Origin: Luidia sarsii
Taxonomy: Eukaryota > Echinodermata > Asteroidea > Paxillosida > Luidiidae
Direction of reading: 5' to 3'
Assembly (NCBI GenBank): GCA_949987565.1
Contig: OX465103.1
Location: 8,763,405 to 8,827,404 of the forward strand
DNA length: 64,000 nucleotides
Made by a program: the position numbers and the translations under genes. Below are positions 29,971 to 50,400 of the stretch, in pieces (positions within the stretch are counted from its first letter, which is position 1; the number at the start of each line of letters is the position of its first letter). The notes beneath the pieces were generated by a model. The model saw nothing but the letters and a program-made list of their open reading frames with translations. It was not told where the DNA came from and searched no databases.

Positions 29971-30658
29971 TAATCCAATCAATCAACTATACAGACAATG
30001 AGGCAATCATCATACCATCCAACGGAGGCAAGCTTGTAATCCGAACGTCGTTCTAAAACAAACGAATGGCGTTTATAACTTGCTTCGCGAGTTTTTCAAT
30101 AAAAGTAAGCCGCGCAATGTCAGTGAGGATATACTAATGATAAATCGTATTTTGGATGTTGAGTGGTCTACGCGAAGTAACAACAATACGAGTTTGGAAA
30201 TCGCCTTTTCAAAGCGCCCGACTGTGTGAGCTTGTTGCCCTTGTGTGTGTCTGCATCGCGTGCGTGATCAGTAGGACCACATGCCTGAAGTGAAGCGTGA
30301 ACTATATATACACCCTACTCTATATGTTTTCAAATTACACTTGGAATTGAACATTCAACCCCAGGTTATCTCAAGCTTCACTATACACTATTTTTATCGG
30401 TTGATTAGATTTCCAAGGTCCCTTTTTTCAAAAAGGGCTTATGGTGATCAGCCCAGCGGAGTTATCTTCGCTTGATTTGCTCTGCATATAGTGTGCTGCA
30501 GCAACATAGCTCTATTTATAGAGCTCTAGCTGTGGCTGCCGCCGTAACCCTTGTCTGGCTATAGGCATTGCGACGATACCCCCACGCACACCGTTCACTT
30601 GGCTCTACAGAAGTCTGAAGCCTAACTCTTGCGGGATTGGAGCCCTCGTGCAAAGCGG

Positions 30659-30665
30659 TATAAAA
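30659..30665 (+). promoter_or_regulatory. TATA box of EctC-like gene 1
   Basis: TATAAAA lies about 79 bp upstream of the GTAAGT donor that ends the inferred non-coding exon. A start near 30690 would give a 5'UTR exon of about 48 nt. In gene 2 the aligned site (about 35560) reads GCTAAAAG, so the TATA core is damaged there. Confidence 0.6.
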
Positions 30666-30689
30666 GACGACCTTTTGGATACAAGACCG

Positions 30690-30737
30690 AGCGACTTTCA
30701 GGGACCACAAACTTCCTTGGAGTGGGCACAAGTTTGG
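30690..30737 (+). other. Inferred 5'UTR exon of EctC-like gene 1
   Basis: The exon ends at a strong donor (TTTGG|GTAAGT) that pairs with the acceptor at 31317-31318, giving a 581-bp 5'UTR intron. Exon end and donor are conserved in gene 2 (donor at 35639). The 5' end is estimated from the TATA box. Confidence 0.55.
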
Positions 30738-31336
30738 GTAAGTACTCCTTTAGACGGAAGCTTCCTCTTGAAGACAAAATGATAGAGCAGACCCGTAAAC
30801 AGGGCTCGAATCGTAGGTATATACAGCCTCTCAAAGTGGACGCGCACCTTGCCTCAATCCCCGAATTTTCCCGGAATCCATATCCGAAAAAAATCCGTTG
30901 AGTACGCTATCCAAATTTCGTTAGCGTATTAAGTACTCACGCAGAGGGCATCAGGCAGCGTCCCAACCACACAGACCTCGACTATTTCCAACATTCGAAT
31001 AAAAACTGACATAAGCCGCCCGCTCATATTCACGTTTCCGAGGTTTAATGGTCTGCACTCCCCGCCATAGTTATTATGGTATCCAGTCTCCTTCAATACT
31101 AAAAACCACTGAGCGCATTGCGCGAAGTCAGGGGTAGGCTATCCAACTAAGAGTACATTACCGGCGCGTATAGAATTATGCACAGTATATAGCCTATGGC
31201 GAAGGTGGCAGTCGGTTTTGACTGCCAAGTCTTGATGAGAAAACTTATGATTATAGAAGTTAGAGCTGTATCATAGGATTCCTTTTCAAATGGACGTTGT
31301 TTGTTTTTCTGTGTGCAGTTTTGGACAGTAACGACC

Positions 31337-32113
31337 ATGATTGTCAAGCACTCTGCCGACCTCCCTGTGGTGGTTCTACCGAATAGCGCCCTCAGCGGCG
31401 TCCAGCTGACCACCAAGGAGGATTACGGGAACTTCACCGTCTTCGAGGCTCGGATCGAGGCCGGTGCCACAGTGCCCCTGAAGTCGGCGGACGGCGAGAG
31501 GAGCGTGCACTTTTACTACTGCATCACCGGGAAGGGCCATTGTCGATCCACTGATGGACGCCAGCACCACGTGGTCCCTGACACCGTGGTGGCGCTGTCC
31601 TCCGACGTGACCTACGAGCTGGTGGTGTCAACGGAGAGCGCCATGCGGCTTCTGGTCGTCTACCACCCAGACGCCGGCTTCGCCTACAAGTCACTCGGGG
31701 TGGTTCGGCATCTGTCGGCACTGATCGGGACCGACAGAGACATCGACTTCGGCAACGGCCACAGCCGCCGATATCTGATTCAGCGGGACGACTTCCCCCT
31801 GGGCATCCACAACACCTGGGTACAGCCAGGAACGACCTCGAGGCTGGGCTACCAGAACCACGTGGAGGGCGTGTATTACATATCGGGGCAGGTCACCTAC
31901 CGGTGGCAGGGTACCAGCGGGGAGTGGGTCGAGGAGAGGTCCAACACGGACGCGGAGAACGGCACCAGCTACCTGATGGAAAAGCACGACAACCACATCC
32001 TGACGTCACACGACCAAGACGCCTACACCATCTGCATCTTCGACCCCGTGCTCAAGGGCGATGAAAACCACCAGCTAACCGAAGACGGGTTCTCCGGATT
32101 CGGGGCTTCCTAG
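31337..32113 (+). CDS. ectC-like: Double-cupin ectoine synthase (EctC)-like protein, gene 1 (258 aa)
   Basis: One coding exon; the ATG context (ACCATGA) is good, and a splice acceptor lies at 31317-31318 just upstream. Residues 1-120 and 121-258 are two related cupin halves. The C-terminal half follows ectoine synthase end to end: GTDRDIDFGNGHSRRYLI, then YQNHVEGVYY, SYLMEKHDNHIL and FDPVLKGDENH...EDGF. In bacterial EctC (family Ectoine_synth), Glu57, Tyr85 and His93 bind iron; their counterparts here are Glu177, Tyr212 and His220. In the N-terminal half the same positions are His58, Val85 and Tyr93, so that domain is probably non-catalytic. Bacterial EctC cyclises N-gamma-acetyl-diaminobutyrate to ectoine in the cytosol. 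No signal peptide is present. No ectA, ectB or ectD neighbour is seen, so the substrate is unknown. Protein identity to gene 2 is 250/258. Another RmlC-type cupin function remains possible. Confidence 0.85.
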   Translation: MIVKHSADLPVVVLPNSALSGVQLTTKEDYGNFTVFEARIEAGATVPLKSADGERSVHFYYCITGKGHCRSTDGRQHHVVPDTVVALSSDVTYELVVSTESAMRLLVVYHPDAGFAYKSLGVVRHLSALIGTDRDIDFGNGHSRRYLIQRDDFPLGIHNTWVQPGTTSRLGYQNHVEGVYYISGQVTYRWQGTSGEWVEERSNTDAENGTSYLMEKHDNHILTSHDQDAYTICIFDPVLKGDENHQLTEDGFSGFGAS

Positions 32114-32235
32114 GCGTCGAAAAAAATCAAGATAGATCGCCAGGATCGACGCCGTAACGTGACATACGTACAACCGTAAGTGACGTACAACCAAATAGAT
32201 CACGCAGCTTGAAATCAAAAGCACACACTAATAGT

Positions 32236-32724
32236 TGTGACCCGGCACAGCATAATGAAGAATAACCCCCACTTTTGAGATTTTGAGATTTTCTAAGGAT
32301 GTGAAAGAGTATACCATTAGCTTTCAAAATGATATCAAATTTATTTCCGTATGAACTTTGTTGCAAATAGTACAAGGGGACTTCGCTCGTTCGTTTCGTA
32401 CCAGACACAATATAGCAGCACCATTCTAACTCCTCGAAAGCGGCCATTCAAAAAGGCAGGGACTTTACATTTTCATGAAAACAGTACACAAACGCTCCCC
32501 TGAAATCCTCGTTTTTTCAATATTTAGAGACGGATTTCGGAAAAATCCTTTGGACATAATATCCTCATGATATACATAATATCTTCATAATATACATTAA
32601 CTTTCCGAAAATACAAAAAACCAACAACTTATGTTTTTATCGAATTGAGAAGATACTTTGACTTCAAGACTTACTCGAAAAGTGTTTTGGTGGGATATTC
32701 CTCATGTCGCTGTGCCGGGTCACA
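32236..32724. mobile_element. MITE family 1, copy 2
   Basis: tgtgacccggcacagcat at one end, gctgtgccgggtcaca at the other; internal ttttggtgggatattcctc. Lies about 120 bp after the stop of EctC-like gene 1 and is absent at the aligned position after gene 2. Confidence 0.75.
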
Positions 32725-33639
32725 ATTACGTACGATTGAAGAAAGATCGCTCCTTCATGGCAAAATCTATAAATAAGAAACACGACAAATCCCAGTTCTG
32801 TTAAGATTCAATAGATATTGAGATGATTCAGGGTGATGATGGTGGTCTTATCGACGATTTACAAGCAAATCTCCCACCTTGAATACAGCCATGTTAATAC
32901 TGATGCCAAAAGTGCCAATGAAAATATTCATCATTGGTGCCCACAGCGGTGATATCGGAAGCAATGGATACTGTTGACGAAAATAAGATTTTACGCGTTC
33001 TGATAAAATGGTGATGGGTTTGGATATTTTGAGATTCTAGTAGATTGTAACTTTCCTTGAAATTGATTTGCCCTACTCAGAGGTTATGATAATCAAATTT
33101 CTAGTTTCATAATAAGGCTCTTCGTATCTTTACAATGTGATTGCGAAAATTAGTTTTAGCACTGTACCAATACCCGTATTAACCTTTGAAATAAATTCAA
33201 TCTTTTGGGATAAACATTAAAATGTTATTGACGTTATTAAAATAATATATCGCTATGTGTACGCCACACTAAAAAGAGGAAATATCCATAGCATAATTGT
33301 GTGAATTTCAGACTTAGGTATTTTGACAGCGATGATTAAGTATGAGTAACATTCGCTCATAAGTAAAATTCGCTCGCTCAATCCATTCTCAATTCGATCA
33401 AATTGAAAAACAAACTTGATCATAAAGATTTGGCCAAACGTATACGTAACGAGGCGAATCATCTTAATTATTCTAAATAAAGAAATAGTACTTATAAGTA
33501 TAATACGAACAGCTAAGAGAGATTTCTACTGCTCTCAATTTGAAAAAGAAAAGCATAGTATCGGTATTAAGAACACTATAAAAAAATATACATTATAACA
33601 ACCAGTTAAATAGAAATAGGCCAATGTTCCTGATGTATT

Positions 33640-34010
33640 TCTGTGTGACAATCCTTCAATCATGACCGAGAAATTCAATAATTATTTTGTCAATGTTGGT
33701 CCAAATTTAGCAAGGGAACTACCTCAGAGTAGAACTATATTTTCAGACTACCTCTCAAATCCGAACCCAAATACAATGGATTTTTTTCACCAGTAACTAA
33801 TAAAGAAGTAATTAGTGATCTTTTGGAAGATTTTGCAAATAAAAGAAGTCGTGGTTTTGACTCTATTAGCACTCTCGTTATTAAAAAGACATCCTCTGCG
33901 ATCTTAGAACCTCTAACATAATCAAGTCGTTACTATTTCATTATCAACTGACACCGTCCCTAATAGTGACTTTGAAGATAGCAAAAGTTATACCCATTCG
34001 TACGAATTCG
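33640..34010 (+). pseudogene. Non-LTR retrotransposon fragment (region before and into the RT domain)
   Basis: Frames contain MTEKFNNYFVNVGPNLA, then after a shift FFSPVTNKEVISDLL and KRSRGFDSISTLVIKK, and TLKIAKVIPI after another shift. This order (NYFVNVGPNLA, PVT..EV, RGFDSIS, LKIAKVIP) is typical of jockey/CR1-type reverse transcriptases. Two frameshifts and a stop make it dead. It lies between EctC-like genes 1 and 2. Confidence 0.65.
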
Positions 34011-34789
34011 GCTACAGACCAAGTAACATACCAACTGTTGCGTGGATCCTTCTCTCCTGTACGTTTTTTTTGTCTCGTACGCGTTTTACCGTCTCATCGA
34101 ACGACTGCGTACGAATACTCACGGGCTTCGTGGAATTTGGTTTGATAATGCGTTTGCGTTTTCATCGTGATGTACGTCTTTCAAAATACATTCGAAATCC
34201 GCGTAAATTAGATAAGGTGTATCTTGTTTGTTTTTAGCAATTCTCAACTTTAAACTATTTTCACACGACTTTGGCATGATAACATTGGAGGGGATGTTGT
34301 TATTGTTATACCTTCACAGTCTTTCTCTAAAATCATATTTCTCTAAAATTATTTCATTATTTAATTTCTCTACAATTAGCTTCACTAATGTTTTTTAAAT
34401 GATTTCTATGATATCTGTAAGGCAGAATAAGCATCTGCACGCTCCGATGATGTAACACTCAAGTTTCACTATCTGCTAATAATAATATTATATTACAGAC
34501 GTAAATATTTTCTTTTTCGACAAATAATTAAATTTTATATTTATCGCAAAAATAAAATCGATACGTTTAGGTATTGGAATATTAACATTCTCGACGTGGT
34601 ATCTAAATATTGAGACTCCAATGACCGAATCATTTGACTGAAATATGGTTTATCTTTTCCATACTTAACTTTAGAAAATGTTTGATTTTTTATTACATTT
34701 TTTTCGGAGTCATGTTAACAATTCCAAGTTCATGAACTTGTTGTATAGCTCGGATTTGTTCAAGTTGTGAAATCCCCATTTCAATGCAC

Positions 34790-35175
34790 GCGAGTGTGTG
34801 TGTGACCTTTTTGACCTTGTGTCTGCGTCTCTATCGCGTGATATGGAGGCATATAGATGAAGTGAAGCGTGAATTTCAGCTACATAGGCCTACATAGAAT
34901 GTCTGTATAACCCCGACTCCATATATTCCACATTACACATGAAATTGAACATTGAGCCACCAGGTTGTCTCAGGCTTCAATTTTACCATTATATCGGTTT
35001 AATTAGAATCCAAAATTTCCTCATTAAACAAAACTTCATGGTGATCAGCCCAGCGGAGGCATCTTGGCTTGAATTACCGTGTACTGTGCTGCAACAATAG
35101 AGCCCTATTTTATAGAGCTCCGTGTACATGTTATACGTGTACTACGTGTACCCTTGTCTGGCTATACGTACTGCG
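34790..35175 (+). repeat. Third, partial copy of the EctC-like upstream region
   Basis: Aligns with 30225-30560: gatgaagtgaagcgtgaa, an aattgaacatt...ccaggtt...caggcttca block, ggtgatcagcccagcggag and cccttgtctggctata. A more distant relative is at about 12590-12800, so part of this upstream DNA belongs to an interspersed repeat. Confidence 0.6.
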
Positions 35176-35589
35176 ACGATAAGTGCAGCGACGGTGAACT
35201 GTATATACCCTCTACTCTATATGTTTCCAAATTACACATGGAATTGAACATTCAACCCCAGGTTATCTCAAGCTTCACAATTTCTACCATTTTTATCGGT
35301 TGATAAGATTTCCAAGGTCCCCTTTTTTTTAAAGGGCTTATGGTGATCAGCCAAGCGGAGTTATCTTCTCTTGAATTACTGTGCATATAGTGTGCTGCAG
35401 CAACATAGCTCTATTTATAGAGCTCTGTGGCCGCTGCCGTAACCCTTGTCCGACTATAGGCACCGCACTGCGACGATATCACCACGCACATCACCGTTGA
35501 CTTGGCTCTACAGAAGTCAGAAGCCTAACTCTTGCGGGATTGGGACCTTCGTGTACAGCGCTAAAAGACGACTTTTTGGATAAAACATT

Positions 35590-35638
35590 AAGTGACTTTT
35601 AGTGACCACAGATTTCCTTGGAGTGACCACAAGTTTGG
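35590..35638 (+). other. Inferred 5'UTR exon of EctC-like gene 2
   Basis: Paralogous to the gene 1 leader exon, with the same TTTGG|GTAAGT donor. The intron runs 35639-36345 (707 bp) and is longer than in gene 1 because it contains the MITE at 35683-35933. Confidence 0.5.
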
Positions 35639-35682
35639 GTAAGTACTCCTATACGTCTGAGACACTTCCTCTTGAGGACGAA

Positions 35683-35933
35683 TGTGACCCAGCACAGCGA
35701 CATGAAGAATATCCCACCAAAACACTTTTCGAGTAAACAACGCCTAAAGTCAAAGTATCTTCTTAATTCGATTAAAAAACAATTTTCTTTTTTGTTTGTA
35801 TTTTTGGAAAGTTAATGAATTGGAGGAAATTTTGATATCATTTAAAAGATAATGGTACACTCTTTCACACCATTAGAAAATCTCAAAATCTCAAAAGTGG
35901 GGGTTCATTCTCATTATGATATGCCGGGTCACA
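35683..35933. mobile_element. MITE family 1, copy 3, in the 5'UTR intron of EctC-like gene 2
   Basis: tgtgacccagcacagcgac to tatgccgggtcaca. The aligned gene 1 intron has the uninterrupted flank, giving a paralogous empty site at about 30776. Confidence 0.75.
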
Positions 35934-36363
35934 AATGATAGCAATCAGACCCGTAAACAGAGCCCGGATTGTCGGTCTTCTCTCGATTCCCCCGATTCTT
36001 CTCGAAATCCATATCCGAAGAAATCTGTTGAGTACGCTATCCAAATCTGGCTGGTATAGTTCCGGTACTCACGCAGAGGACACCAGGCAGCGCCCCAACC
36101 ACACAGAGCGTCCCGAGTACCACACAGACCCTATCTCCGAAATTCGAATCAAAACTGACATACGCCGTCCGCTCATGCGCAAGTTTCATCCCCGTCATAG
36201 ATATTGTATCCAGTCTTCCCCAGGGCCTATACAGTCGAAGGTCGGTTTTGATTGTCGAGTCTACATGAGAAAACTTTTGACTAGGAGTTACAGCTGCATC
36301 ATGTAAACAAAATCAAATAGACGTTGTTTGTTTTTCTGTGTGCAGTTTCAGACAGTAACGACC

Positions 36364-37140
36364 ATGATTGTCAAGCACTCTGCCGACCTCCCTGTGGTGG
36401 TTCTACCGAATAGCGCCCTCAGCGGCGTCCAGCTGACCACCAAGGAGGATTACGGGAACTTCACCGTCTTCGAGGCTCGGATCGAGGCCGGTGCCACAGT
36501 GCCCCTGAAGTCGGCGGACGGAGAGAGGAGCGTGCACTTTTACTACTGCATCACCGGGAAGGGCCATTGTCGATCCACTGATGGACGCCAGCACCACGTG
36601 GTCCCTGACACCGTGGTGGCGCTGTCCTCCGACGTGACCTACGAGCTGGCGGTGTCAACAGAGGGCGCCATGCGGCTTCTGGTCGTCTACCACCCAGACG
36701 CCGGCTTCGCCTACAAGTCACTCGGGGTGGTTCGGCATCTGTCGGCACTGATCGGGACCGACAGAGACATCGACTTCGGCAACGGCCACAGCCGCCGATA
36801 TCTGATTCAGGGGGACGGCTTCCCGTTGAGCATCCACAACACCTGGGTACAGCCAGGAACGACCTCGAGGCTGGGCTACCAGAACCACGTGGAGGGCGTG
36901 TATTACATATCGGGGCAGGTCACCTACCGGTGGCAGGGTACCAGCGGGGAGTGGGTCGAGGAGAGGTCCAACACGGACGCGGAGAACGGCACCAGCTACC
37001 TGATGGAAAAGCACGACAACCACATCCTGACGTCACACGACCAAGACGCCTACACCATCTGCATCTTTGACCCCGTGCTCAAGGGCGATGAAAACCACCA
37101 GCTATCCGAAGACGGGTTCTCCGGATATGAAGCCTCCTAA
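36364..37140 (+). CDS. ectC-like: Double-cupin ectoine synthase (EctC)-like protein, gene 2 (258 aa)
   Basis: A tandem duplicate of gene 1, 5,027 bp downstream of it. Only eight residues differ: V96A, S101G, R150G, D152G, G156S, T248S, F255Y and G256E. The ligand-equivalent residues Glu177, Tyr212 and His220 are kept. The acceptor at 36344-36345, the 18 bases between it and the ATG (one base changed), and the upstream non-coding exon (ending 35638) are shared with gene 1. Its 5'UTR intron carries a MITE that gene 1 lacks. AATAAA at 37343-37348, about 200 bp after the stop, is a plausible polyadenylation signal. Three of the eight changes (150, 152, 156) cluster at the start of the C-terminal cupin. 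Function is inferred as for gene 1. Confidence 0.85.
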   Translation: MIVKHSADLPVVVLPNSALSGVQLTTKEDYGNFTVFEARIEAGATVPLKSADGERSVHFYYCITGKGHCRSTDGRQHHVVPDTVVALSSDVTYELAVSTEGAMRLLVVYHPDAGFAYKSLGVVRHLSALIGTDRDIDFGNGHSRRYLIQGDGFPLSIHNTWVQPGTTSRLGYQNHVEGVYYISGQVTYRWQGTSGEWVEERSNTDAENGTSYLMEKHDNHILTSHDQDAYTICIFDPVLKGDENHQLSEDGFSGYEAS

Positions 37141-38556
37141 TTATCAAACAAATCAAGAGAGGTCGACAGGATCAACGCCGTAACGTGACATAGAAGTGAC
37201 GGACAACCAAATAGATCACGACCAATCACTCATAAAGGATGGATACGTAATTATACCAAAAGCACACACAATTTCAGATCGACGAAAGGAAGCCCCTATA
37301 ACGCCAAAATCTGTAGACCCCAAAATTGTAACGCAGAAACACAATAAACCCCAACTCCTTTATAATTCAATCGGAATAGATATATATTGAGACGATACTG
37401 GGTGGTAATGGTTTTCTTGACGACGATTAACAACCAAAATTACTTCTCCCATTTTGAATACAGCCAATATTCACGCCAAAAGTGCACACGAAATAATTAT
37501 ACTTGGTGCCTGTGCATATAATTATAGCGGCTTGCTTTAAACAGCAATGGACACAGTTGACGAATTTACGCGTTCTGATAAACGGTGATGGGTTTGGATA
37601 GGCCTATTTGGGGATTCTAGTGAATTTTAAATTTGTTTTGGCCTACTCAGAGGTAATGATAATTGAGTAGGCCTACATTATTTTACTTTTTTTTTTATTA
37701 AGGCTCTTCGTACATTTTACAGAGTGATTGTGAAAATTATTTTGGTAATTTTACCATTGACCTTATATTCGCCTTTGAAATATATCATGGAATGTTTTGG
37801 GACAAACATCAAAATAATGTTATCGTTTTTAAGATAATGACTTGCTTTGTGTACGCCAAATTAAAACGAGGTAATGTCCTTAGCACATAATATAGTGTGA
37901 ACTTTGTGGTTATATTTGAACGTCATGTACTTTGACAGTGACGTTCAGTTGTGAGTAAAATCCGCGTGGTCCTGTTTTGCACCTTTAGTTTTAGTTTCAG
38001 GTTTTTAGAGAGTTCGAAGTTGCCCTGAAATTCCACTTCTTCGTTAGATGCTTCGTTTTTCTCTTTTTTTTGATTGCACTACGGTGACGATCGGACTTGA
38101 AAAAGTCTACCCGCACAATCCAACCCCTATCAGGTTTTTCATGTCCATTATTTTTATCGAGCTATGTATAATTCTTCTCTCCTCAGTTTCCCTTAATGTG
38201 CACCTGGACTACAACATAGCTTGCACTACACATGATTGATTCCGTTAGCACGTAGTCGGTGCCGGATGCCCGCTTGACGCGTGTTTGCTTCAAGTTCTGG
38301 CCGCGATCCCGACGGATCCTGGGAAGAAAATCGTTTTCTTTCGGAAGGATTTTCTTCTTCATCAAGCAGCAGCACTAGCACAAGCAATGACGATGATTTA
38401 TAAGAGAGGGGTGAAATTAATGTCCGCGGTGCTGAGCCATATCGGTTTGAGCCCTGGGCAGCGAACAGCCTGAGGCGACGAGGCCAACGGACGTGATGTC
38501 CAAGTCCCCGCGAATGGTCGGCTGTTGAACAATCACTGATGCATTGTTTATAATTA

Positions 38557-38795
38557 TGTGACCCGGCACAACGACATGAGAAATATCCCACCAAAACACT
38601 TTTTGAGTAAACAACGCCTGAAGTTAAAGTATCTTCACAATTCGATTTCAAATCAATTTTCTTTCTTTTTCGTATTTTCGGAAATTTTAAGTATTAGAGG
38701 ATATTGTATTGTGATATCATTTGAAAGCTAATGGTATACTCTTTCACAAATTCTCAAAAATGGGGTTATTCCTCATCATGCTGTGCCGGGTCACA
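38557..38795. mobile_element. MITE family 1, copy 4
   Basis: tgtgacccggcacaacgac to gctgtgccgggtcaca, flanked by TA on both sides. Confidence 0.75.
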
Positions 38796-38929
38796 TATCC
38801 ACGCACTCAGGTTTGGTTTTGCGGGGTGAATTGAATGGCAGTATTAGTATTACCGGTCCAAGTGACTCAGACTAATACCATGGCATAGTGAAACCTTTCA
38901 CAAAAGCCTTTTATATTGAAGCCTTTCAG

Positions 38930-39048
38930 TCATAGCGCGTTCTTTAGGACGCGGACCCACTCGCGTTGTGTTGAAAAGACAGGAAGCATACTCCCTGACG
39001 TTTGCTGGTGTTTCGACTACAACCACCAACCACACACGATTCTGGCAT
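38930..39048 (-). pseudogene. Degenerate THAP-type zinc finger start
   Basis: MPESCVVGGCSRNTSKRQGV resembles the C-x4-GC start of a THAP domain. The open frame then diverges, but another frame continues as FSTQREWVRVLKNAL, the expected W-containing helix. A frameshift inside the domain suggests a transposase or THAP pseudogene. Only about 40 residues are visible. Confidence 0.45.
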
Positions 39049-40629
39049 CGTGCATAGCGGTGGCAATGTGTTCAGAGGAAACAAAATACAGCCCGTATCA
39101 CTATTCACTATGGCCGCCTGTTGTAGCGTACACACACACAAGTCTGGGACTCCAAAGATGTATGTCACGGGGTCATTGCATATCATTATGGCGTCATTAA
39201 TCCTTTTCTCGATTCGGGCACGGCGCGCTGTTAAAGGTGATTTGTGATCGTCGTTTTTTTAATAAACGGGAGTCTAAACGTACGTAGGCCTAACCGTATT
39301 TCACAGCCAATAATTTGTCTTACTTATTCCGTAAGCGCAAAATGATTCACTACGCGCATGCGTGAATTGCTTCCCTGCCTGGAATGCAAAAGAAATCGTT
39401 GCGTTGTCGTCTGCTTATTGCCGCATTTTGCAAAGTATTTTCGGCAAAGGAGGTAAAGCCAAACCTTGCCAAAACCTGCGTCGGTGAAAATATTTCTAGG
39501 GGTTTTGTCTAAAATAATTTGCACTTACTGATGAAATTTAGGTCGTCGAATTCGACGGACGGTGGCCATTTTTTTTGGGGGGGGGGGGTATAGAAAATCC
39601 TGCGCAGAAATAGCGCCGAATCCTTGCATAAGCGTTCCATGAAATGAATTATGCGCTTACAGCGTCCTGTAAGTGCAGAATTCTGCGTTAAGGGGAGCCA
39701 TGAAATTGGGCCCAGTCGAAAACTGGAGGCAGAAATCTTCTCTCCAGTTCACGACTTGACAAAAATTGGGGTCAGCAAACAATATTTTTACCAACATCGT
39801 GTCGACGCATGCACGGGTTATACTTATAGGACCGAATATCAATAAGATTACGATACATACGGTGACGGCTTCTGTAATGACTCCAGGAACCAAACGGTGA
39901 AATTTACCATGACTTTACTACGCACATGTCAGGACTAAAAAATGGTTTCCGTTAGCTGCGAAGTGGTAGTGCGTGCGTGCTTGCGTGGCTGGCGGCCGGG
40001 CGTGATAACGCCCTCTCGTGGTGGCGGGCTAGCGAACATCCAAACGATAACAAGGTCTAGCTCCTAGACTACCGTGGTGCACGTGACCGTGCAACTTTCT
40101 CTCTCCAACTGCCGTTGATTGTTCTCACACGTGAGTGCCACCTTCATTCTGAAATATTGACCAAAAATGTGCTGACACTGTAGCTGTCATATATCCGAAT
40201 CAGAATGAGTTTCTTAATCCACGACCATAGTTAACATTGTCCAAATCAGAGCTTCCAACACCTTGAAAATCTGCACTTTCAAGAGGTTTTAGCTCGCAGC
40301 GCTGCCTGCAAGTTCACGTTGGAAGTATGTATGGGTCATTGGACTCGACGACTGTTGCATGGACCCTCACACGACGACTGTTTCCAGTACACTTATTTTG
40401 GTCCAATTATTGTTTCCCTGTAGGATCAACCTAACATGAGAGAGATAGGGTTTGCATAGTACCTCTTTGTTCACTTGATTCTTTTATAACATGTACTTCA
40501 CTCTCTTTGCCCTCTTTTTTTATAATTAAAACAAATCTGAATCATTCAATCATAAATTAATTGTTATTGTTCTTCTTATGAGTCATTTAATTGTTGAATT
40601 GCCAGAGGAATCAACCCTGATTATTATAT

Positions 40630-40743
40630 AGTGATATACAAAAATGTTGCAAACTGCTTACTGACTAAAATTACCAAAATGCAAATCTTAAAATTTAGTG
40701 GGCCTGACGTTTCGATCCTAGCAGGACCTTTCTCAAAGGCATT
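40630..40743 (-). repeat. Penelope-type hammerhead-like repeat
   Basis: Same sequence as at 15.9, 54.1 and 62.2 kb: gatatacaaaaatgttgcaa through gcctgacgtttcgatcctag. Confidence 0.55.
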
Positions 40744-42717
40744 TGAGAAAATTATTATAGTTAGGCGGATTCACCCCTCACGTAACCGTGGCAGTACCAA
40801 CTACTGCAATACTACCATGTGGTTGTGAAATAATCATACTTTGTACATCTGTTGAATATTATCATTGTCCTGTTTTGAGATTATAATTGGCAAATCGGAC
40901 AAGCATCAAGGTCAAGCCCACTTGAACAAAAGTTGTATTTGTTTATAACGAAACCAAGCAAGGACCGCAAGCGTAATGGTCTCAAAGTCCAGTCGAGCAC
41001 GCAAAGAGCTTGCTCCATCGTTTCACCTTGTACAATGCATCAGTGGTGCAGTTTGTATAGTTGTACTGGAGAAACAGGCTGTAGACGTGTGTACATAGCT
41101 CGTGCACGGAGCGTGGAGGTAGGCCGCACGCATTAATTTGTGTTACTGTCACAAACGTAGGATGAGATAAGAATAGCGATTTCAGGCAATTCGTGGTCGA
41201 GGTAGTAGCAAGTCGATGGTGGTTTGCAGTGACACAATGCGAAGATAGACCTATCTCTTCTGTGGGTTGTTTGGGTTTTGGATAGAACCGATTCAAACTC
41301 AACGTTTTTGAAGAGTATACTCTGTCCGTAGTCAGGGGACTTTGGAGATTATGTGGTGGTCAAAAGGGATCCTGGGTGCGGTGAGGCACTGAGGTGTGAC
41401 AGACCCAACCAAGAGTCACGCTCAGTGTCTACCTGAATGAGCTGAGGCGAAGAAATGGCTACATATTCAAAAATCAACTCGTCCTATAGGCTATAGCTAG
41501 GGAGTTGATTGGGTTGGGGAAGTTCCATCGAGGAGAGAGATAAGAGCTCCACACGGTATATGATACCGGTTGCGATGTTACTATTTCTACAGATGGAATT
41601 CTAACAATTTAATATAGGCCTCGTGCTTCGCCAACACTGAGATGATATTTGATTTTAAACCACGCGATCAGGTGATCGTGAATTTCTTCCAATTTCAAGC
41701 AATTTTCTGTTTGAACCAGGTACTTCCTTGCTCTATGGTTGAACCAGCCATAATTTTAAAACAACAAAAAAGCAAATATCTGCTGACTTCTGCGAAATGA
41801 TTTGAAAAAAGAAAAAGAAAAAAAAGAGAAGATTTCAATTTTTGGGCCAAGAGAAATAAATTCATCTGGAGTTAAAGGTAACATATCTGACTGACTTTCC
41901 CAAAGTCAATCAGGATCCTGGGCAGCAAAGTAATCATTTGTAAAAAGTTGCCTGGCACTTGGTATTTTAAGCCCCGCCCTAGCTGACCAATCTCTGTGGT
42001 TCTGGGTGTGCTGTTTTGGCAGGCCGTGTACATTTTCTAGGTGGGTATTAATTTCTAGATACGAATTTGAATTGTAACCGTCCCATTGCACTTTCTTAAA
42101 AACAATGGACTATTTTTTTTTCAAAGTCCTCCTTTGGGCATGTGACCCTCCTTACTTTATATACGGAAGGGCCGGCCGTGCTTTCAGGTGTATGTGGAGC
42201 TGTGCTTGTTGCAGTGCAGTGATCAATGGACGCGATCACAAAGCCATTCTGTTGGGGAACACGACGCGAAGGATGTACTGATATTTTTAGACAGCGGACC
42301 TGTGCCAATTATGTGAAAAAAGGAAGACAATGTCTGGGAATAAACAGTTTTGCTCCACTCTATTCAGGCTGGTGGTTTTATAACTCTGTCAGTACTGATA
42401 GTCGGCTATTGGTGGCCTTTTTCCAAAACCCGGCTTCTGCTCCGGCTTCGTCTCTGTTTCCAAAAGCTGAAAACACCGGTTGGAGCTACATGTGTGTATT
42501 TGTTGAAGTTGAAGTTTTGGATTCTTTTCCAAAACCCAGTATACCGTTCAGATATGAAGCCAAAGGCTTCCCTTTTCATGCATTGTACTTTAAAATGGAT
42601 TTACGAACTACGTGTGTACTTAACACTACAAGAGTTATGCGTCACACAGAAATCAGTTAGAGAGTGGTGCATATTTTCGTTTAATTTCCCCATGCAGCTC
42701 AGCCAAAAGCGGCCGCA

Positions 42718-43497
42718 ATGATCATCACCCATACTGCGGATCTGGACGAGGGGCCCCTGCCCAACAGCGCCCTCAACGGCATACGGTTGTCCAGCGAGGA
42801 GCAGTACGCCCCCTTCACCGTGCACGAGGCGCGCATTCCGGCAGGCGCGACCGCGCCCCTGAGATCGCCCGACGCCAAGAGCTGCGTGCACGTTTACTAC
42901 TGCATCGAGGGCCGAGGCACGAGCTCGGCGACTGGAGGAGGAGACAAGCACGATGTCCGTCCCGACACCATGGTGGCGCTCTCCTCCGACCAAGCCCACG
43001 AGATGACGGTGTCGCCAGAGGGCGCCATGAGGCTGTTCGTAGTCTACTTTCCAGACGTCGAGATGCAGTACCGTTCCCTGGCGGTCGTGCGGCGACTGGA
43101 CGAGGTGGAGGGCACCGACCGTGACGTCGACTGGGGCAAAGGTCACAGCTGGCAGCACCTCGTCCACCGGGACGGCTTCCCCGTGGGCATCCACAAGACC
43201 AGGCTGGCCCCGGGCACGTCGCTCCGCATCGCGCACGCGCACCACGTGGAGGGCGTGTACTACACGTCGGGGCGGGTCGACTACCGGTGGCGGCCGGGCA
43301 CCAGCGATTGCAGCGCGCAGTCCAAGGTGGACGCGCGCAACGGAAGCCTCTTCCTGCTGAGCGCGCACGACAAGCACACCCTGGAGAACCAGGTTGACGC
43401 GCCGGCCGACTGCGTCAACGTCTGGTACCCGGCCCTGACGGGGGAGGAGGGCAAGACGACTACCGCCGATGGCTACACTGGATTCGATGCCAATTAA
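42718..43497 (+). CDS. ectC-like: Double-cupin ectoine synthase (EctC)-like protein, gene 3, divergent (259 aa)
   Basis: The same two-cupin layout and single coding exon, with a splice acceptor at 42696-42697 that leaves a 20-nt leader before the ATG. It is colinear with genes 1 and 2 but only about half identical by eye (NSALNGIRL, EARIPAGAT, VHVYYCIEGRG, GTDRDVDWGKGHS, HHVEGVYY, YPALTGEE). The C-terminal metal positions read Glu178, Phe212 and His220, so the iron-binding Tyr of bacterial EctC is Phe. The N-terminal half lacks the ligands, as in the other two genes. The coding exon is markedly GC-rich compared with its AT-rich flanks. A TATA-like TTTATATA lies near 42157, but I could not fix an upstream exon. 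The Tyr-to-Phe change could mean loss of, or change in, activity. Confidence 0.82.
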   Translation: MIITHTADLDEGPLPNSALNGIRLSSEEQYAPFTVHEARIPAGATAPLRSPDAKSCVHVYYCIEGRGTSSATGGGDKHDVRPDTMVALSSDQAHEMTVSPEGAMRLFVVYFPDVEMQYRSLAVVRRLDEVEGTDRDVDWGKGHSWQHLVHRDGFPVGIHKTRLAPGTSLRIAHAHHVEGVYYTSGRVDYRWRPGTSDCSAQSKVDARNGSLFLLSAHDKHTLENQVDAPADCVNVWYPALTGEEGKTTTADGYTGFDAN

Positions 43498-44484: not shown

Positions 44485-47400
44485 TCAGGTGCCCGCCTGC
44501 GTACCGACCTGTGGGGCGGCCTTGGCCAGGCTCTTTCGGCGGTGTCGGCGCAGCGAGCGGGCCGTGTCGCTCAGGGTGCGGCCACGGTGGTCCCGCCACG
44601 TCAGCTTCTCCCGGAGATCCCGCAGCAGTGTGTCCTCGCTCGGGTACGGCCGGAGCTAGAAGAGGCGAGGGTGGAGTGGAGTGAGGTGGGCCGGGTGGGG
44701 TGAGGTTTGTTGGGTGGGGGAGAAAGACAAATCGGAAGTGCTTCATAATTACATTCCACTCAAGTTTATCCAGACTCTAAACTGAGCGTACGCCTCCGCG
44801 CTGCGGAGTGATATTCCACACAAAGAACTTAATTTCGGTCTTATTCGCTGCCTCGCTCAACCGAACGCAATTGCACAAATTCTTGTGAAACCCGAACAAA
44901 GAGGACTGTCGAAACCCAAACTAACAATGCAGGAATATCGTGCTCTATGTGGAGAATTCAGACCATCATCAATGGTGCCACCATGTACTATGTATCGCTT
45001 TGTGAGCGCGTGGTGTTTTTAAGTGTCACAAAAGCTCACGTAGTTCATTTGTACCTGGAACCACAAACAGTTGTTGAATTGTCACCAGGATTGGTCTTAA
45101 AACAATTTCAAGTACAAAAGCTAGACCTTCGTAGATCTTTTTACTGACCAGTATAAATCAATGGTTATAGATGTGCATAGATAACCGCGCTTATCTAACT
45201 CAAGAATAATGACAACTCATACACTGTGCGAGCAGCCCTATTACATGTACATGTACTAGTAAATGCCATTCAAGAATCAAAGTAATGAATTGAGAAATAG
45301 GTTTCCAGTGCAGTATTAAGTTGAAGTGTTTAAAGTGACTCGTGACTTGGAGCCGAGATTAAGCTTAGTGATGCGTGACTTGGACTCAGACTTGACCTGG
45401 ATGACGATCGGGACTTAGCACTCGGACTCGGGAATGCGACTCGCACTCAAAACTCGGACTCGATATTCAGCGACTCGGGCACAGATACCGATTTTTATAT
45501 CCTTGTGGAGACATTGCTTTGTTCTCGTGCAGTTATACAACCGACTGAAAAACGATGCTTTAAAAATGCTCCCATTTCAACCACATTTCACTTTCCTGGG
45601 TAGAAATTTGGATCGTATGTCCCTTATGTATAACACTTCAAGATTTTTTAACCCATCGAGTTATTTCCAAGTATCAGTTTCGTGAAAAACTTGTGGAGAC
45701 CTGTATAGGAAACACCTTTACAATTTCCCTGTGGAGACCTATTGTCTGAGGTCTCCAAAAGGCACTAGATTCGCGCCCACGGGTCCGGCAGTAACACCTT
45801 ATACGGTTGGGCCGGGTGGGCAGGGAACTCACGAGATCCGTGATGGCCTTGATGTTGGCCTCGGTGGCGTGCCTGGTGTAGAACCTCTTGGCCACCATGA
45901 TGCACTCCACGCCTTGGCTGACCAGGCACAGGCTGGGCTGCCTGCCGAACACTATGTCAGACACGCCCTGTGGAAACAAGCACGACAACAAGACCGAAGC
46001 ATTCACGCTTCTACACTTCGCTTCACCACCCTGTAAATACTTTAAGGTTTGCACGGTGGAAGTACCGAGTGGAAGGTTTTCTTTCGGGACGGAGTGTGAT
46101 CAGATTTGAAGGTTTGTTTGACGATGTGAAAATACCAAGTAGGAGTTTTGCGGTGACACCATGAGCCATACTCATCTTTATAGAGATGATATACAATGTG
46201 TTAACCCAAACCTCCTATAGGCCTATACTTGAAACGGGGTATGCATGGCTCTGTTCATAGCCACACTCCGTCTCAACAGAGATGATTTTTGCACGGTGTC
46301 ACCGCAAACCTTCCACTAAACCACACACCGTAAAAAAAACGTAGGGGAACGGGTATGGGCATCAGCCAATTTCATACAGCCGCTTAAACACCAACCTTTG
46401 CGTAAGCACGAAAAGCCGGCCTCCGTAAAGGAAAAGCAACTAAAGCTCCGCTTGAATTTCATGATAAGCAGCAATCTAATGTATTGACGCGAGTCATGGG
46501 GCAGCAAGCATCGAGTGAAAAATGTGGTTGGCAATCTTGTTTTCATGCTTAGCAGATTTTCGTGCTTAAGCAGCTGTGCATTGTCGTATCTAGACCTGGT
46601 GCCTGGGAGGAAACGATTTTGGATAGTTCTGTGAAGCACAGACCGTCTATGAATAACAGATGTTGCTTCATGCTCTACACTTTTGTGTATTGACCTGCCC
46701 GGAGTACACAGTCTACATTGTTTTCCATGAGCCTTTTTTTTTTAGTTTCGAAACGCCATCTCACCCCCCCCCCCTGCTCTCGTCCTCTGCGCTTCTTAGA
46801 TGGCGGGACATCGTCCAGCTAGGAACATTCGAAAATAGGATTGAACTCACAAAGATGGCACCCCGTTCCAGCGTGTCTATCTGCACAAAGGTATCCCGTC
46901 CGATGCTGGAGATCTCGGCAACCTGAAGATGACATGTTTTGAAAAAGAGAGCGATATTAAAAGCGGGGCCATTTGAATTGAGGCCGCCGTCGTCGTGGTA
47001 GTGGTGGTATAGTAGGTGTGGAGGTGGCGGTGGCAGTTGTAGTGGTTGTCGCAATGACACATTTACAGTGACAGTGGTAGTGGGAGCGGAGGTGACAGTG
47101 GCAGCGGTGGTGGCGGTGGTGGTGGCGGTGACGTTGGCGGTGACGTTGGCAGTGGTGGTGGTGGTGATGGTGGTGGGGGTGGTGGTGGTGACGTTGGCAG
47201 TGGTGGTGGTGGTGGTGGTGGTGGTGGTGGTGGTGGTGGTGGTGGTGGGGGTGGTGGTGGGTGTGGGGGTGGTGGGGGTGGTGGTGGTGGTGGTGGTGGT
47301 GGTGGTGGTGGTGGTGGCGGTGGCGGTGGCGGTGGTGGTGGTGGTGGTGGTGGTGGTGGTGGTGGTGGTGGTGGTGGTGGTGGTGGTGGTGGTGGTGGTG

Positions 47401-50400
47401 GTGGTGGTGGTGGTGGTGGTGGTGGTGGTGGTGGTGGTGGTGGTGGTGGTGGTGGTGGTGGTGGTGGTGGTGGTGGTGGCGTTGGTGGTGGCGTTGGTGG
47501 TGGCGGTGGTCGGGGTGGTAGTCGTGGTGGTGACGGTGGTGGCAGTGGCAATGAAAGTGGCAGTTGCAGTGCCAGTGGACGTCTGGCAGTCAAAAGCCCG
47601 CGCCTCATTTGACTATACCACGGATCCTTTCACCATGTTGTCCATAAATTATACGGGCATGCACATTACTCGCCTTATAGGTGGCTGCTTGATATCCAAC
47701 ATATTGATGGAGACAAACTAACAGTGAACTTTGGACACAATTTGAAAGGGGGGAAGACAACTTGACTGTGCCGGGACTTGAGCCGCTGGCGTTCAAGATT
47801 AAGATCGGTGGGAGGATTGGCGGTGCGGTTGTTCTCACCTGCTGATCGGTATCCACATCGTCTTGGTCTTCGTGGCTGGCGAAGCTGATGTGCTTTTGCT
47901 GCGGGTCGGTGAGCGTGTCGTCCCCGGTCCGACTTGACGTCGGCGTGTCTGATCAAAGACGGGAGGAGACATGCGGTGTGATTCAGTGAGGGTTTGTCCC
48001 ATGGGCTGCGCTCAGTTTAGCACCTTATTGTTTTACATTCACATTTAATTCAATGCTGTCACTCTGTACAGTGTAACCAAGCATGTACAAATACATACGA
48101 GTTACACTCCATTGAGTAACACTTCATAAAATAGTATCACACATTAATTTGATGAATTCGTATTCGTACATTTTGATAAATTAAATGACAACTTGTAGGT
48201 TTAAGTTTAAGCAAGACCTGTCTTGGCCGTGGGTTACGCTTTTGATGAGAATAATTGAAACTTGATTCAGTTCAGAAAGTAGACATGCTGCCATCGTGCC
48301 ATGTACATTATAATGATCATATGTATGTGTGTAGTATGTGTATAGGAAAGGCTCGTGCCTATAAGGCAGCAAACGACCAAGACAAAATACAGGAAGTTTG
48401 CGGTGACACCGTGGAAGTCATCTCTTTCGAGGGGCCGGACTCCATCTCGAAAAAGATGGCTTACGTGGTGTCAACGCGAAAGCCTTATCCAGTCCTAGAC
48501 ACACAATGAAAGAGCCGGGCACTAATGCCGTGACAACGACATCTTCCCGAGTCAAGGAACGCGACTCGTTCCTACCGGTGTTTTGATGGAGGACCGACGG
48601 GTGCCCGTGGTCGCTGATGGCCGGCGCGGGTTCTGCAGTCGGGGGCTGCCCGGTCACCTTGATGTCCGGAAGGCGCCGGCTGTGTGTCAAGAACGGGCCC
48701 TGTGTGTACGTACGGGAAGAAAGACGGTAACGTCCATTGCACTTTCAGGCCCTGGTCTCGGCACACCTCTCTCTCTCGGCCTACCGGTACCTTAGAACTA
48801 TGACATTGACTAGGCCTCTTGTGTTTATATCGCACGAGGTCATGATATTATGTGCATGTATGATATCCCCAACCTCTTGCACGCCCACTTTTTCCTCGGC
48901 ACGGGTCTGTAGGGCACTAATGAACTTGAATCTGCTGTTCCCAAGAGAAAGTACATTCACCGAAGCCCGATAAGGTAATGGTTGGATGCTCATTGAATTC
49001 ATGTAGTTGTAGTACATGTCGTATCGGGCGATTCCCGAGGGTGCGCCCTCAAGAGTTTGTAACGCGTTGTCCAGTCACAATGCGAGGAATCTGTCGACCC
49101 CTTCCAGACGTGCAATTGGTCGCCAGATTCCGGGCATTGTGATTGGTAAACGCGTTGCAAACTCCTGAGGGCGCACTATTGTGAATCGCCCGTATTGGTA
49201 CGTGAAACCGACTTTGAGGCAATCGATCGAGTTGACTGCATGATAAACGGAGGACATTCCTCTGACGGATGAAAATATATCTAGAAATGTTGGAAGGTCG
49301 ACGAGTTTCCATCTTGACGATTGCCCTGGAACCGACAGCCTGCCTGGTGTGGCGTGGCGGCAGAGACAGCGCCAGAGAGGGCGGGGATCACCCGTGTGCC
49401 GTACCCGAGGAAATGCCGGGGCGGTGACGCGTCCGACGACCGGCCGTCGGGTGGCGGGGCTCGCGTCTCCCTCGGGCGAGCTGCAGCCGGCATCGGGCTC
49501 GGCCGAGGGCGGCGGGCCGACCGGGCGACTGGAATCGGAGACCACGATGGCCGGGACGCTGGAGGGCGCCGTTGCCGCTTCTGGCGGCGGTGCCGGTTCC
49601 GTCGCGGAGTCGTCGGCGGCCAGGTGGTCGTCTCGCATGGGGATTCGCACCAGGTTGGTGGGGCGGTAGGTGTCCTGCAGACGGCGGGACTTGCCGCGCA
49701 GGGCCTTGGCCCGCTTCCGCTGCATGTCGCGCAGTCTGCGGGCGATGTGCTCCTCGTGGCCCATGGCCAGGGAGGCTGCGGCCTGCGGTGAAGCAGCTGC
49801 ACAGCGTAGGTGGGAAGCAAACCAACAAAGTCACGCCAAGCTCACGTCAACCAGGAAATTCGAGTCTAGAAGACTTTAGGCTTTGCAAGGTGGGTGAAAC
49901 AGTATTGGAGGGTTTGCAGTGACACCAAGTATAAGGTCTCTGATAAAGAAGAGGTATGGGTTCTGAAAAGAACCTGAGTGATAACTCTAAGATAACTGAG
50001 CTATCACTCAGATTCACCTTATACATGGTGTCACCGCAATCCCTCCTATATTTCACTGGCGGGGGGGGGGGGGGGGGTGGCAGGACTAGCCTTACTTCCA
50101 GTTATTTATAGGCCACCCGTTTCAACCAGGGAGAAGATATGTGAGCCGGCACAGCATAATGAGGAACAACCCCATTTTTGAGATTTTGAGGTTTTCTATA
50201 ATGATGTGAAATAGTATACCATTAGCTTTCAAATGATATCAAAATATCATATCCTCTAATACTTAAAATTTCCGAAAATACAAAAAAGAAAGAAAATTGA
50301 TTTGTAATCGAATTGTGAAGATACTTTAACTTCAGGCGTTGTTTACTCAAAAAGTGTTTTGGTGGGATATTCCTCATGTTGTTGTGCAGGGTCTCATATG

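What the first reader, a model, noticed from the sequence alone, without database searches (positions are those of the whole stretch)
31337..43497. Tandem family of double-cupin ectoine-synthase-like genes in an animal genome
Three paralogues encode proteins whose C-terminal half follows bacterial EctC from the TDRD start to the C-terminal DGF. A second, EctC-related cupin is fused in front. Known bacterial EctC is a single-cupin protein of about 130 residues. A duplicated, fused, animal-encoded version with spliced leaders would be a new member of the solute-synthesis family, probably acquired by horizontal transfer and then domesticated.
Basis: partly seen in the sequence, partly recalled or inferred. 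Interest (0 to 1): 0.9.

Follow-up and report, generated by a model that had tools for sequence, protein, structure and literature searches.

The report
Sea star double-barrel ectoine-synthase-like genes
A chromosome of what is most likely a sea star carries three neighbouring genes for a doubled-up protein related to the bacterial enzyme that makes the salt-stress protectant ectoine, and the same genome also holds a look-alike of the enzyme that hydroxylates ectoine, so an animal may make an ectoine-like compound; this has not been shown.

Summary
Three uninterrupted frames encode 258-259 aa proteins of two EctC-type cupins; a fourth copy lies on another chromosome. The mitochondrial contig indicates an echinoderm, most likely a sea star. 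The gene 1 C-half scores best against Ectoine_synth (82.6 bits). The N-half is a distant EctC-type cupin (24-33 bits) without the iron triad, yet the better conserved half in 6 of 6 gene pairs. AlphaFold predicts a confident bicupin.

The interpretation needs changing. The C-halves group with orphan 'GNGxS' EctC-like proteins, not with EctC of ectABC operons (1000 of 1000 bootstraps); 0 of 56 GNGxS loci have ectA/ectB in the fetched flanks. No EctA or credible EctB was found, but one EctD-like frame carries the 17-residue hydroxylase signature.

Best reading: an orphan-type EctC-like cyclodehydratase working as an internal pseudo-dimer, making ectoine or a related cyclic amidine that the EctD-like enzyme may hydroxylate. 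Substrate and product are inferred. EctC-related sequences in animals are already reported; I found no report of the bicupin.

The parts
31337..32113 (+). Gene 1: bicupin EctC-like protein, 258 aa, single coding exon; iron ligands of PlEctC all conserved in the C-half
31337..31693 (+). Gene 1 N-half (119 aa): degenerate EctC-type cupin without the iron triad
   Evidence: predicted strands between residues 2 and 111
31694..32110 (+). Gene 1 C-half (139 aa): orphan-type EctC-like cupin (motif FGNGHSRR; E177, Y212, H220 stand for E57, Y84, H92 of PlEctC)
36364..37140 (+). Gene 2: bicupin EctC-like protein, 258 aa, 97% identical to gene 1 (758 of 774 bases); iron ligands conserved
42718..43497 (+). 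Gene 3: bicupin EctC-like protein, 259 aa, 51% identical to gene 1; in the C-half the columns of Y84, Y52, R25 and F106 read F, H, Q and W
30659..30665 (+). TATAAAA upstream of gene 1 (possible promoter; not kept at the matching place upstream of gene 2)
   Evidence: inference
30738..31318 (+). Predicted 5'UTR intron of gene 1 (GTAAGT ... TGTGTGCAG)
   Evidence: no RNA support
35639..36345 (+). Predicted 5'UTR intron of gene 2, same donor and acceptor as gene 1
   Evidence: no RNA support
42680..42697 (+). Acceptor-like site TTTAATTTCCCCATGCAG 20 bases before the ATG of gene 3
   Evidence: weak
30297..30752 (+). Upstream block of gene 1, 85-93% identical in pieces to 35194-35653 upstream of gene 2 (less alike than the two coding regions)

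Best explanation
The genes encode a bicupin related to orphan ('GNGxS') EctC-like proteins, built by duplication and fusion of the cupin domain. SHOWN by sequence: two EctC-type halves, the iron triad only in the C-half, four intact copies in an echinoderm (most likely sea star) genome, C-halves on the orphan side of the tree, and an EctD-like companion frame. INFERRED: the protein works as an internal pseudo-dimer. Bacterial EctC is a head-to-tail homodimer; here the N-half would supply the partner surface, and perhaps a regulatory or binding role, while the C-half of genes 1 and 2 binds iron(II) and removes water from an N-acylated diamino acid to close a cyclic amidine such as ectoine or a near analogue. 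The EctD-like dioxygenase encoded elsewhere could hydroxylate that product. Gene 3 and the C2 gene, with Tyr84 to Phe, may have altered or lost activity. I put about 0.55 on a metal-dependent cyclodehydration of this general kind (which includes the specialised-metabolite rival below) and about 0.3 on ectoine itself being the product.
Against: No EctA match at E 0.001 in the own genome, though 7 of 14 control genomes ring for that model (exon-by-exon search, so a split gene could be missed). EctB gives only two fragments of 26-27 bits against a cut-off of 552 bits, and 14 of 14 controls ring too. Several close bacterial relatives sit beside adenylation, acyl-CoA dehydrogenase, ketosynthase, PKS or NRPS genes and none of 56 beside ectA/ectB, which points to another substrate. 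The Trp21 column is Gly in the sea star, as in 56 of 56 GNGxS-type rows; an aromatic residue two positions earlier may replace it. The C-half of gene 3 is weakly constrained: dN 0.70 against dS 0.67 with C2. The EctD-like protein misses its family cut-off (244.6 against 336.5 bits) and differs at 18 of 72 columns invariant in 12 bacterial EctD rows, including Phe to Thr at residue 306, near what I recall as an ectoine contact.
Confidence: 0.55

Rival explanations
1. The protein no longer makes ectoine-like compounds: it is a domesticated bicupin used for small-ligand binding or another metal reaction, with the N-half carrying the conserved function.
For: N-halves are more alike than C-halves in 6 of 6 gene pairs (for gene 1/gene 3, gene 1/C2 and gene 3/C2: 56/52/48% against 46/46/35%). 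In gene 3 the columns of Y84, Y52, R25 and F106 have changed and in C2 that of Y84. All four N-halves share VH-x-YY, LPNSAL and VALSSD.
Against: Genes 1 and 2 keep the whole iron triad plus R25, T40 and Y52, which would be unlikely to persist without use. An EctD-like gene is present in the same genome.
Confidence: 0.25
2. It serves a specialised metabolite: cyclisation of an acylated diamino acid as may happen in bacterial biosynthetic clusters, unrelated to osmoprotection. (Same chemistry as the best explanation, other product; the two overlap.)
For: Close bacterial relatives lie beside adenylation enzymes, a PigA/prolyl-carrier-protein dehydrogenase-like enzyme, ketosynthases, PKS or NRPS. 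None of 56 GNGxS-type loci has ectA/ectB in its fetched flanks.
Against: No such cluster was seen near the sea star genes, but only 7 other frames of the window were scanned. The EctD signature companion fits ectoine better.
Confidence: 0.3
3. A bicupin of the (S)-ureidoglycine aminohydrolase (UGlyAH) type, in purine breakdown.
Against: 22.8 bits is far below the 200-bit cut-off; genes 1 and 2 do not hit that model. Ectoine_synth scores 88-105 bits. A shared bicupin fold shows no function.
Confidence: 0.03
4. Bacterial contamination or an assembly artefact.
For: Coding regions are uninterrupted, with GC3 of 81-90%.
Against: The loci lie inside contigs of 28, 32 and 20 Mb of a 471 Mb assembly. 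The C2 and C14 loci share repeat families with the window at up to 92% identity over 250 bases (C2) and 98% over 114 (C14).
Confidence: 0.01

Closest known systems
Orphan (solitary) EctC-type proteins of bacteria, e.g. L013 Methylobacter sp., L014 Rhizobium mongolense, L018 Crenotrichaceae
   Same: GNGxS motif, iron triad, no ectAB in the fetched flanks; 35-41% identical over the C-half; same side of a 100/100 split
   Different: Single cupin (about 125-130 aa); the sea star proteins add a degenerate cupin in front and are eukaryotic
Ectoine synthase EctC (PF06339; P. lautus 5onm/5onn/5ono, S. alaskensis 5bxx)
   Same: Best sequence family of the C-half; in genes 1 and 2 also E57/Y84/H92, R25, T40, Y52
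   Different: Bicupin, Trp21 column is Gly, below the NCBIfam cut-off, no ectA/ectB partner found
ectA/ectC-related sequences of Branchiostoma floridae and Saccoglossus kowalevskii (Harding et al., cited in PMC5924519 and PMC5796728; passages of the citing papers seen; the original not held)
   Same: EctC-related sequences in deuterostome animals
   Different: The passages seen mention no double cupin, sea star or animal EctD partner; whether those animal proteins are bicupins is unknown to me
(S)-Ureidoglycine aminohydrolase / DUF861 bicupins (4e2q, 1sfn, 1sef, 1rc6)
   Different: 13-15% identity; sequence family cut-off not met

Membership tests
Ectoine synthase EctC | Pfam PF06339 gathering score (27 bits) | tested here: met
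   88.0-105.4 bits for genes 1-3; C2 gene 80.9 bits in the genome search
Ectoine synthase EctC | NCBIfam NF009806 cut-off (128 bits) | tested here: not met
   110.8, 113.5 and 94.1 bits. The bacterial orphan L013 passes with 165.3, so this model does not part orphan from operon EctC; it shows divergence of the sea star proteins
Ectoine synthase EctC | Iron ligands Glu57, Tyr84, His92 - genes 1 and 2 | tested here: met
   ligands from PMC6344544
Ectoine synthase EctC | Iron ligands Glu57, Tyr84, His92 - gene 3 and C2 | tested here: not met
   Tyr84 is Phe in both
Ectoine synthase EctC | Trp21 at the substrate | tested here: not met
   Gly in 4 of 4, as in 56 of 56 GNGxS-type rows; Trp in 37 of 37 canonical rows
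Ectoine synthase EctC | Single cupin of about 130 aa | tested here: not met
   258-261 aa, two cupins; 11 of 11 annotated plasmid genes fetched are 125-137 aa
Ectoine synthase EctC | Partner genes EctA and EctB in the genome | tested here: inconclusive
   EctA 0 matches at E 0.001, EctB two 26-27-bit fragments; exon-split genes can be missed; the laxer EctA search did not complete (on)
Ectoine synthase EctC | Cyclisation of N-gamma-acetyl-diaminobutyrate | not testable with these tools
   needs purified protein
Orphan GNGxS EctC-like proteins | Phylogenetic grouping | tested here: met
   GNGxS + sea star split 100/100, 1000 of 1000 bootstraps; nested within or sister to them is unresolved (AU p 0.32)
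Orphan GNGxS EctC-like proteins | Aromatic-G-[NHSG]-G-x-S motif (my own working definition) | tested here: met
   FGNGHS in genes 1 and 2, FGNGKS in C2; gene 3 has WGKGHS, with K outside the bracket, so strictly 3 of 4
(S)-Ureidoglycine aminohydrolase | NCBIfam TIGR03214 cut-off (200 bits) | tested here: not met
   22.8 bits in gene 3, no hit in genes 1 and 2
Ectoine hydroxylase EctD (the C14 companion) | 17-residue signature F-x-W-H-S-D-F-E-T-W-H-x-E-D-G-M/L-P | tested here: met
   FYWHSDFETWHSEDGMP; signature from PMC5924519
Ectoine hydroxylase EctD (the C14 companion) | NCBIfam TIGR02408 cut-off (336.5 bits) | tested here: not met
   244.6 bits

The most novel reading that the evidence does not exclude
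Sea stars themselves make ectoine, hydroxyectoine or a new cyclic-amidine analogue, using a self-dimerised bicupin EctC and an EctD-type dioxygenase (possibly mitochondrial, from its N-terminal extension), with the acylated diamino-acid substrate supplied by divergent host enzymes, diet or microbes. This would be an animal compatible-solute pathway of bacterial origin.
Probability: 0.3. Interest if true: 0.85.

Novelty: new variant of a known kind. Interest (0 to 1): 0.62.

Why it matters
If active, it would bring a solute pathway known from bacteria, a few archaea and some protists (PMC5924519, passages) into an animal phylum. It would also give the orphan EctC proteins, whose function is called unresolved or not yet clear in PMC5924519 and PMC6344544 (passages), a tractable eukaryotic example. 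A fused pseudo-dimer with one half lacking the iron site is also a clean case for asking why EctC is a dimer.

Tried and rejected
Ectoine synthase proper was rejected as the filing: NCBIfam cut-off, Trp21, single-cupin build and (two genes) Tyr84 were not met. Ureidoglycine aminohydrolase was considered because of the fold matches and a weak hit, and rejected on sequence. EctC chains are not among the 50 rows shown of either structure search, which rank two-barrel chains first; I draw nothing from that. Contamination was rejected on chromosome context and shared repeats.

Led nowhere: viral-contig scan with gene 1 (10 stretches, 0 confirmed); first genome-contig scan with the three paralogues (two patterns, 115 stretches, 0 confirmed), so no bacterial bicupin was found, but with a narrow search; first structure job with 3 rows (pLDDT 61.0), replaced by 40 rows. 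A first count of invariant EctD columns was spoiled by two truncated rows; I dropped L082 and L026 of 14 and recounted on 12. Rfam found one weak tRNA match only. tblastn of bacterial EctA, EctB and aspartokinase against the window and the C2 and C14 loci gave only hits of E 0.6 or worse. The sea cucumber metabolomics paper PMC12860522 has ectoine only in its reference list (passage).

So 56 of 93 is not a natural frequency. Some flanks end at contig ends and those of the plasmid loci are 1.5-2.5 kb. Start codons of the bacterial frames were chosen by script. The tree has only 130 columns. The structure alignment A3 used 37 of the 93 bacterial rows plus genes 1-3.
Full report
WHAT IS THERE. 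Three frames encode 258, 258 and 259 aa. Genes 1 and 2 are 97% identical in protein and 758 of 774 in DNA; gene 3 is 51% identical to gene 1. Whole-genome search of the window's own assembly (471 Mb, 227 contigs; window at C3:8763405-8827404) with PF06339 gives 5 matches, which are these three genes (gene 3 twice, once per half) and one gene on C2. A search with gene 1 itself gives 4 matches, the same four genes. The C2 gene is 261 aa and 49% identical to gene 1.

THE ORGANISM. Contig C227 (16,429 bases) carries COX1 (Pfam match) and frames that I read as COX2, ND1 and ND2, open under the echinoderm mitochondrial code, with ND1 and ND2 on the strand opposite to COX1. That arrangement is, from memory, the sea star one; the code and proteins say echinoderm, and the class is my recall. 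The species is not known.

BOTH HALVES ARE EctC-TYPE. Pfam's best family is Ectoine_synth for all three proteins (102.1, 105.4, 88.0 bits; cut-off 27). The gene 1 C-half alone scores 82.6 bits; the N-half alone 24.2 (gene 1, under the cut-off) and 32.9 bits (gene 3). Profile comparison of the four N-halves with the C-half/bacterial alignment gives probability 96.5% and E 9.6e-10, pairing His58 of the N-half with Glu57 of EctC. In the residue table made with MAFFT (which sets a gap there and pairs other residues with E57) no N-half has the E57/Y84/H92 set; gene 3's N-half has a lone His in the H92 column. The AlphaFold model on 40 rows has pLDDT 84.5 and pTM 0.85, with a similar strand order twice, residues 2-111 and 121-236. 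The 37 bacterial rows are single-cupin and should bear on the C-half mainly, so the N-half rests on few rows.

WHICH EctC. I collected 93 bacterial loci: 80 from a genome-contig scan (the closest of 575 confirmed) and 13 from plasmids. By a motif near residue 20, 56 are 'GNGxS' and 37 are canonical. EctA or EctB is found by tblastn in the flanks of 0 of 56 GNGxS-type and 34 of 37 canonical loci. In a careful tree of 96 rows the three sea star C-halves (gene 2 left out as near-copy) form one clade (100/100), and GNGxS-type plus sea star are split from canonical EctC with 100/100 and in 1000 of 1000 bootstrap trees. Whether the sea star clade is nested within or sister to the GNGxS-type is open: holding the 56 rows alone together is not rejected (p 0.32). 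Sea star branches are long, so finer placement should not be trusted. In the 99-row tree with N-halves these sit on a branch of 4.1 changes per column, and I draw nothing from their place.

ACTIVE SITE. Against PlEctC (PMC6344544, passages): E57 and H92 kept in 4 of 4 C-halves, Y84 in genes 1 and 2 only (F in gene 3 and C2), R25 in 3 of 4, T40 in 4 of 4, Y52 in 3 of 4; the W21 column is Gly in 4 of 4. GNGxS-type rows have E57, Y84, H92, T40, Y52 and R25 in 56 of 56 and Gly at W21 in 56 of 56; canonical rows have W21 in 37 of 37. PMC6344544 reports that in some orphan proteins the Trp is shifted by two residues; in the sea star the aromatic of the GNGxS motif is F, F, W and F (genes 1, 2, 3, C2). 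At the N38 column canonical rows mostly carry His (36 of 37), GNGxS-type mostly Thr (37 of 56), and the sea star His in three genes and Thr in C2: a mixed picture that partly goes against a pure orphan-type pocket.

NEIGHBOURS OF THE BACTERIAL RELATIVES. From plasmid annotation: an NRPS (L008), a PKS (L007), ketosynthases (L012), an ATP-grasp protein and an MFS transporter (L006), a desaturase, a GNAT acetyltransferase and a halogenase (L009); L010 and L011 carry no annotation there. By family scan of 14 neighbour proteins from 7 loci: adenylation/AMP-binding enzymes (L013, L016, L022; fused to a ketosynthase in L014), an acyl-CoA dehydrogenase like PigA or prolyl-carrier-protein dehydrogenase (L013), a ketosynthase (L034), but also a PRA-isomerase-like and a transglutaminase-like protein and a threonine ammonia-lyase relative (L022), and a Rieske oxygenase and a sulfotransferase (L032). 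Two frames of L013 and one of L058 matched no family. The other GNGxS loci were not scanned.

THE COMPANION. EctA (TIGR02406): no match at E 0.001, while 7 of 14 control genomes ring. EctB (TIGR02407): two fragments of 26-27 bits against a 552-bit cut-off, while all 14 control genomes ring. EctD (TIGR02408): one frame on C14, 244.9 bits, with 0 of 14 control genomes ringing. The C14 frame is 372 aa. Its residues 206-222 match the EctD signature 17 of 17; PMC5924519 describes that signature as telling true EctD from related dioxygenases (passage). Best PDB hit is ectoine hydroxylase 4mhr (E 3.1e-64); the 20 plasmid records listed of 74 are 37.5-41.1% identical over about 300 aa. It keeps 54 of 72 columns invariant in 12 bacterial EctD rows and differs at 18, and misses its family cut-off (244.6 against 336.5). 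Its first about 50 residues (8 K/R, 3 D/E in 45) extend beyond the bacterial match and could be a mitochondrial presequence; no predictor was run. The C14 locus and the C2 locus share repeat families with the window.

GENE STRUCTURE AND EVOLUTION. Genes 1 and 2 share a GTAAGT donor and a CAG acceptor 18 bases before the ATG. Acceptor-like sites also precede gene 3, C2 and the EctD-like gene, scoring 12, 10 and 11; scores of at least 12, 11 and 10 occur in 9%, 19% and 31% of random stretches, so each alone is weak. Coding regions of genes 1 and 2 differ at 16 of 774 sites (6 synonymous, 10 non-synonymous), while their upstream blocks are 85-93% identical in pieces; recent gene conversion of the coding part is a reasonable guess. 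N-halves are more alike than C-halves in all six gene pairs; for gene 1/gene 3, gene 1/C2 and gene 3/C2 the figures are 56/52/48% against 46/46/35%. Whole-gene dN/dS (NG86) is under 1 for all six pairs (about 0.3 to 0.7), but dN 0.70 and dS 0.67 in the C-half of gene 3 against C2. So the N-half without the iron site is under at least as much constraint as the C-half.

MECHANISM. Bacterial EctC is a head-to-tail homodimer held by the N-terminal strand of one chain against strand 81-86 of the other, and forms ectoine by iron-assisted water removal (PMC6344544, passages). In the sea star model both halves begin with a matching strand (residues 2-5 and 121-125), which suits an internal pseudo-dimer with one working site in genes 1 and 2. 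This step is inferred. The presence of an EctD-like gene favours ectoine or an analogue as product; the missing EctA/EctB and the orphan-side grouping argue for another substrate. I keep both.

WHAT IS KNOWN. PMC5924519 and PMC5796728 (passages) report from Harding et al. that ectA- and ectC-related sequences occur in eukaryotes including Branchiostoma floridae and Saccoglossus kowalevskii, and that ectA-ectC fusions exist in some cases. PMC5924519 calls the function of orphan EctC unresolved; it tells that a P. syringae orphan ectC gave ectoine production in a Halomonas elongata ectC mutant, but calls that data set not yet conclusive. The Harding paper itself is not held. My answered searches (ectoine synthase with eukaryotes; EctC with amphioxus, 78; ectoine with starfish, 85; ectoine synthase with nonribosomal peptide, 87; EctC with metazoan, 89; ectoine with sea star or hydroxyectoine, 106; ectD with Branchiostoma, 118; ectoine with echinoderm, 130; ectoine synthase with bicupin or double cupin terms, 138) listed no title or abstract on an animal bicupin EctC or a sea star EctD. 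These were listings, cut at 20 of 25, 10 of 485 and 10 of 20, and they cover only the open PMC library.

VERDICT. A real, intact, unusual family; a new variant of the orphan EctC kind; function open but sharply testable.

Noticed in passing
G000:C14:19478771-19479889 (minus), locus L108 4472-5590: Uninterrupted 372 aa EctD-like frame with the full 17-residue ectoine hydroxylase signature and an N-terminal extension; another long frame lies at L108 288-1148 (unidentified).
   Followed up: partly
G000:C2:13542524-13543306 (+), locus L003 1111-1896: Fourth bicupin EctC-like gene, with NHVEAAYYI near the Glu57 place but Tyr84 to Phe.
   Followed up: partly
window 35682-35936, also 38555-38799, 50136-50399 and others: A roughly 250-base repeat family shared by the window, the C2 locus and the C14 locus; one copy lies in the predicted intron of gene 2.
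   Followed up: partly
window 17609-18109 (minus): Frame with a weak C-type lectin match (19.6 bits, cut-off 22.6).
   Followed up: no
window 54526-54846 (minus): Frame with a weak GIY-YIG match (16.8 bits, cut-off 22.6), possibly a retroelement remnant.
   Followed up: no
window 46957-47612 and 9765-10616: Long low-complexity stretches giving spurious long open frames.
   Followed up: no
GNGxS-type bacterial loci L013 and L018: Two gammaproteobacterial loci with the same frame layout: two frames of about 320 aa (in L013 without a Pfam family), the EctC-like gene, then in L013 an acyl-CoA dehydrogenase and an adenylation enzyme (families scanned in L013 only); a possible conserved unnamed biosynthetic cluster.
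   Followed up: partly
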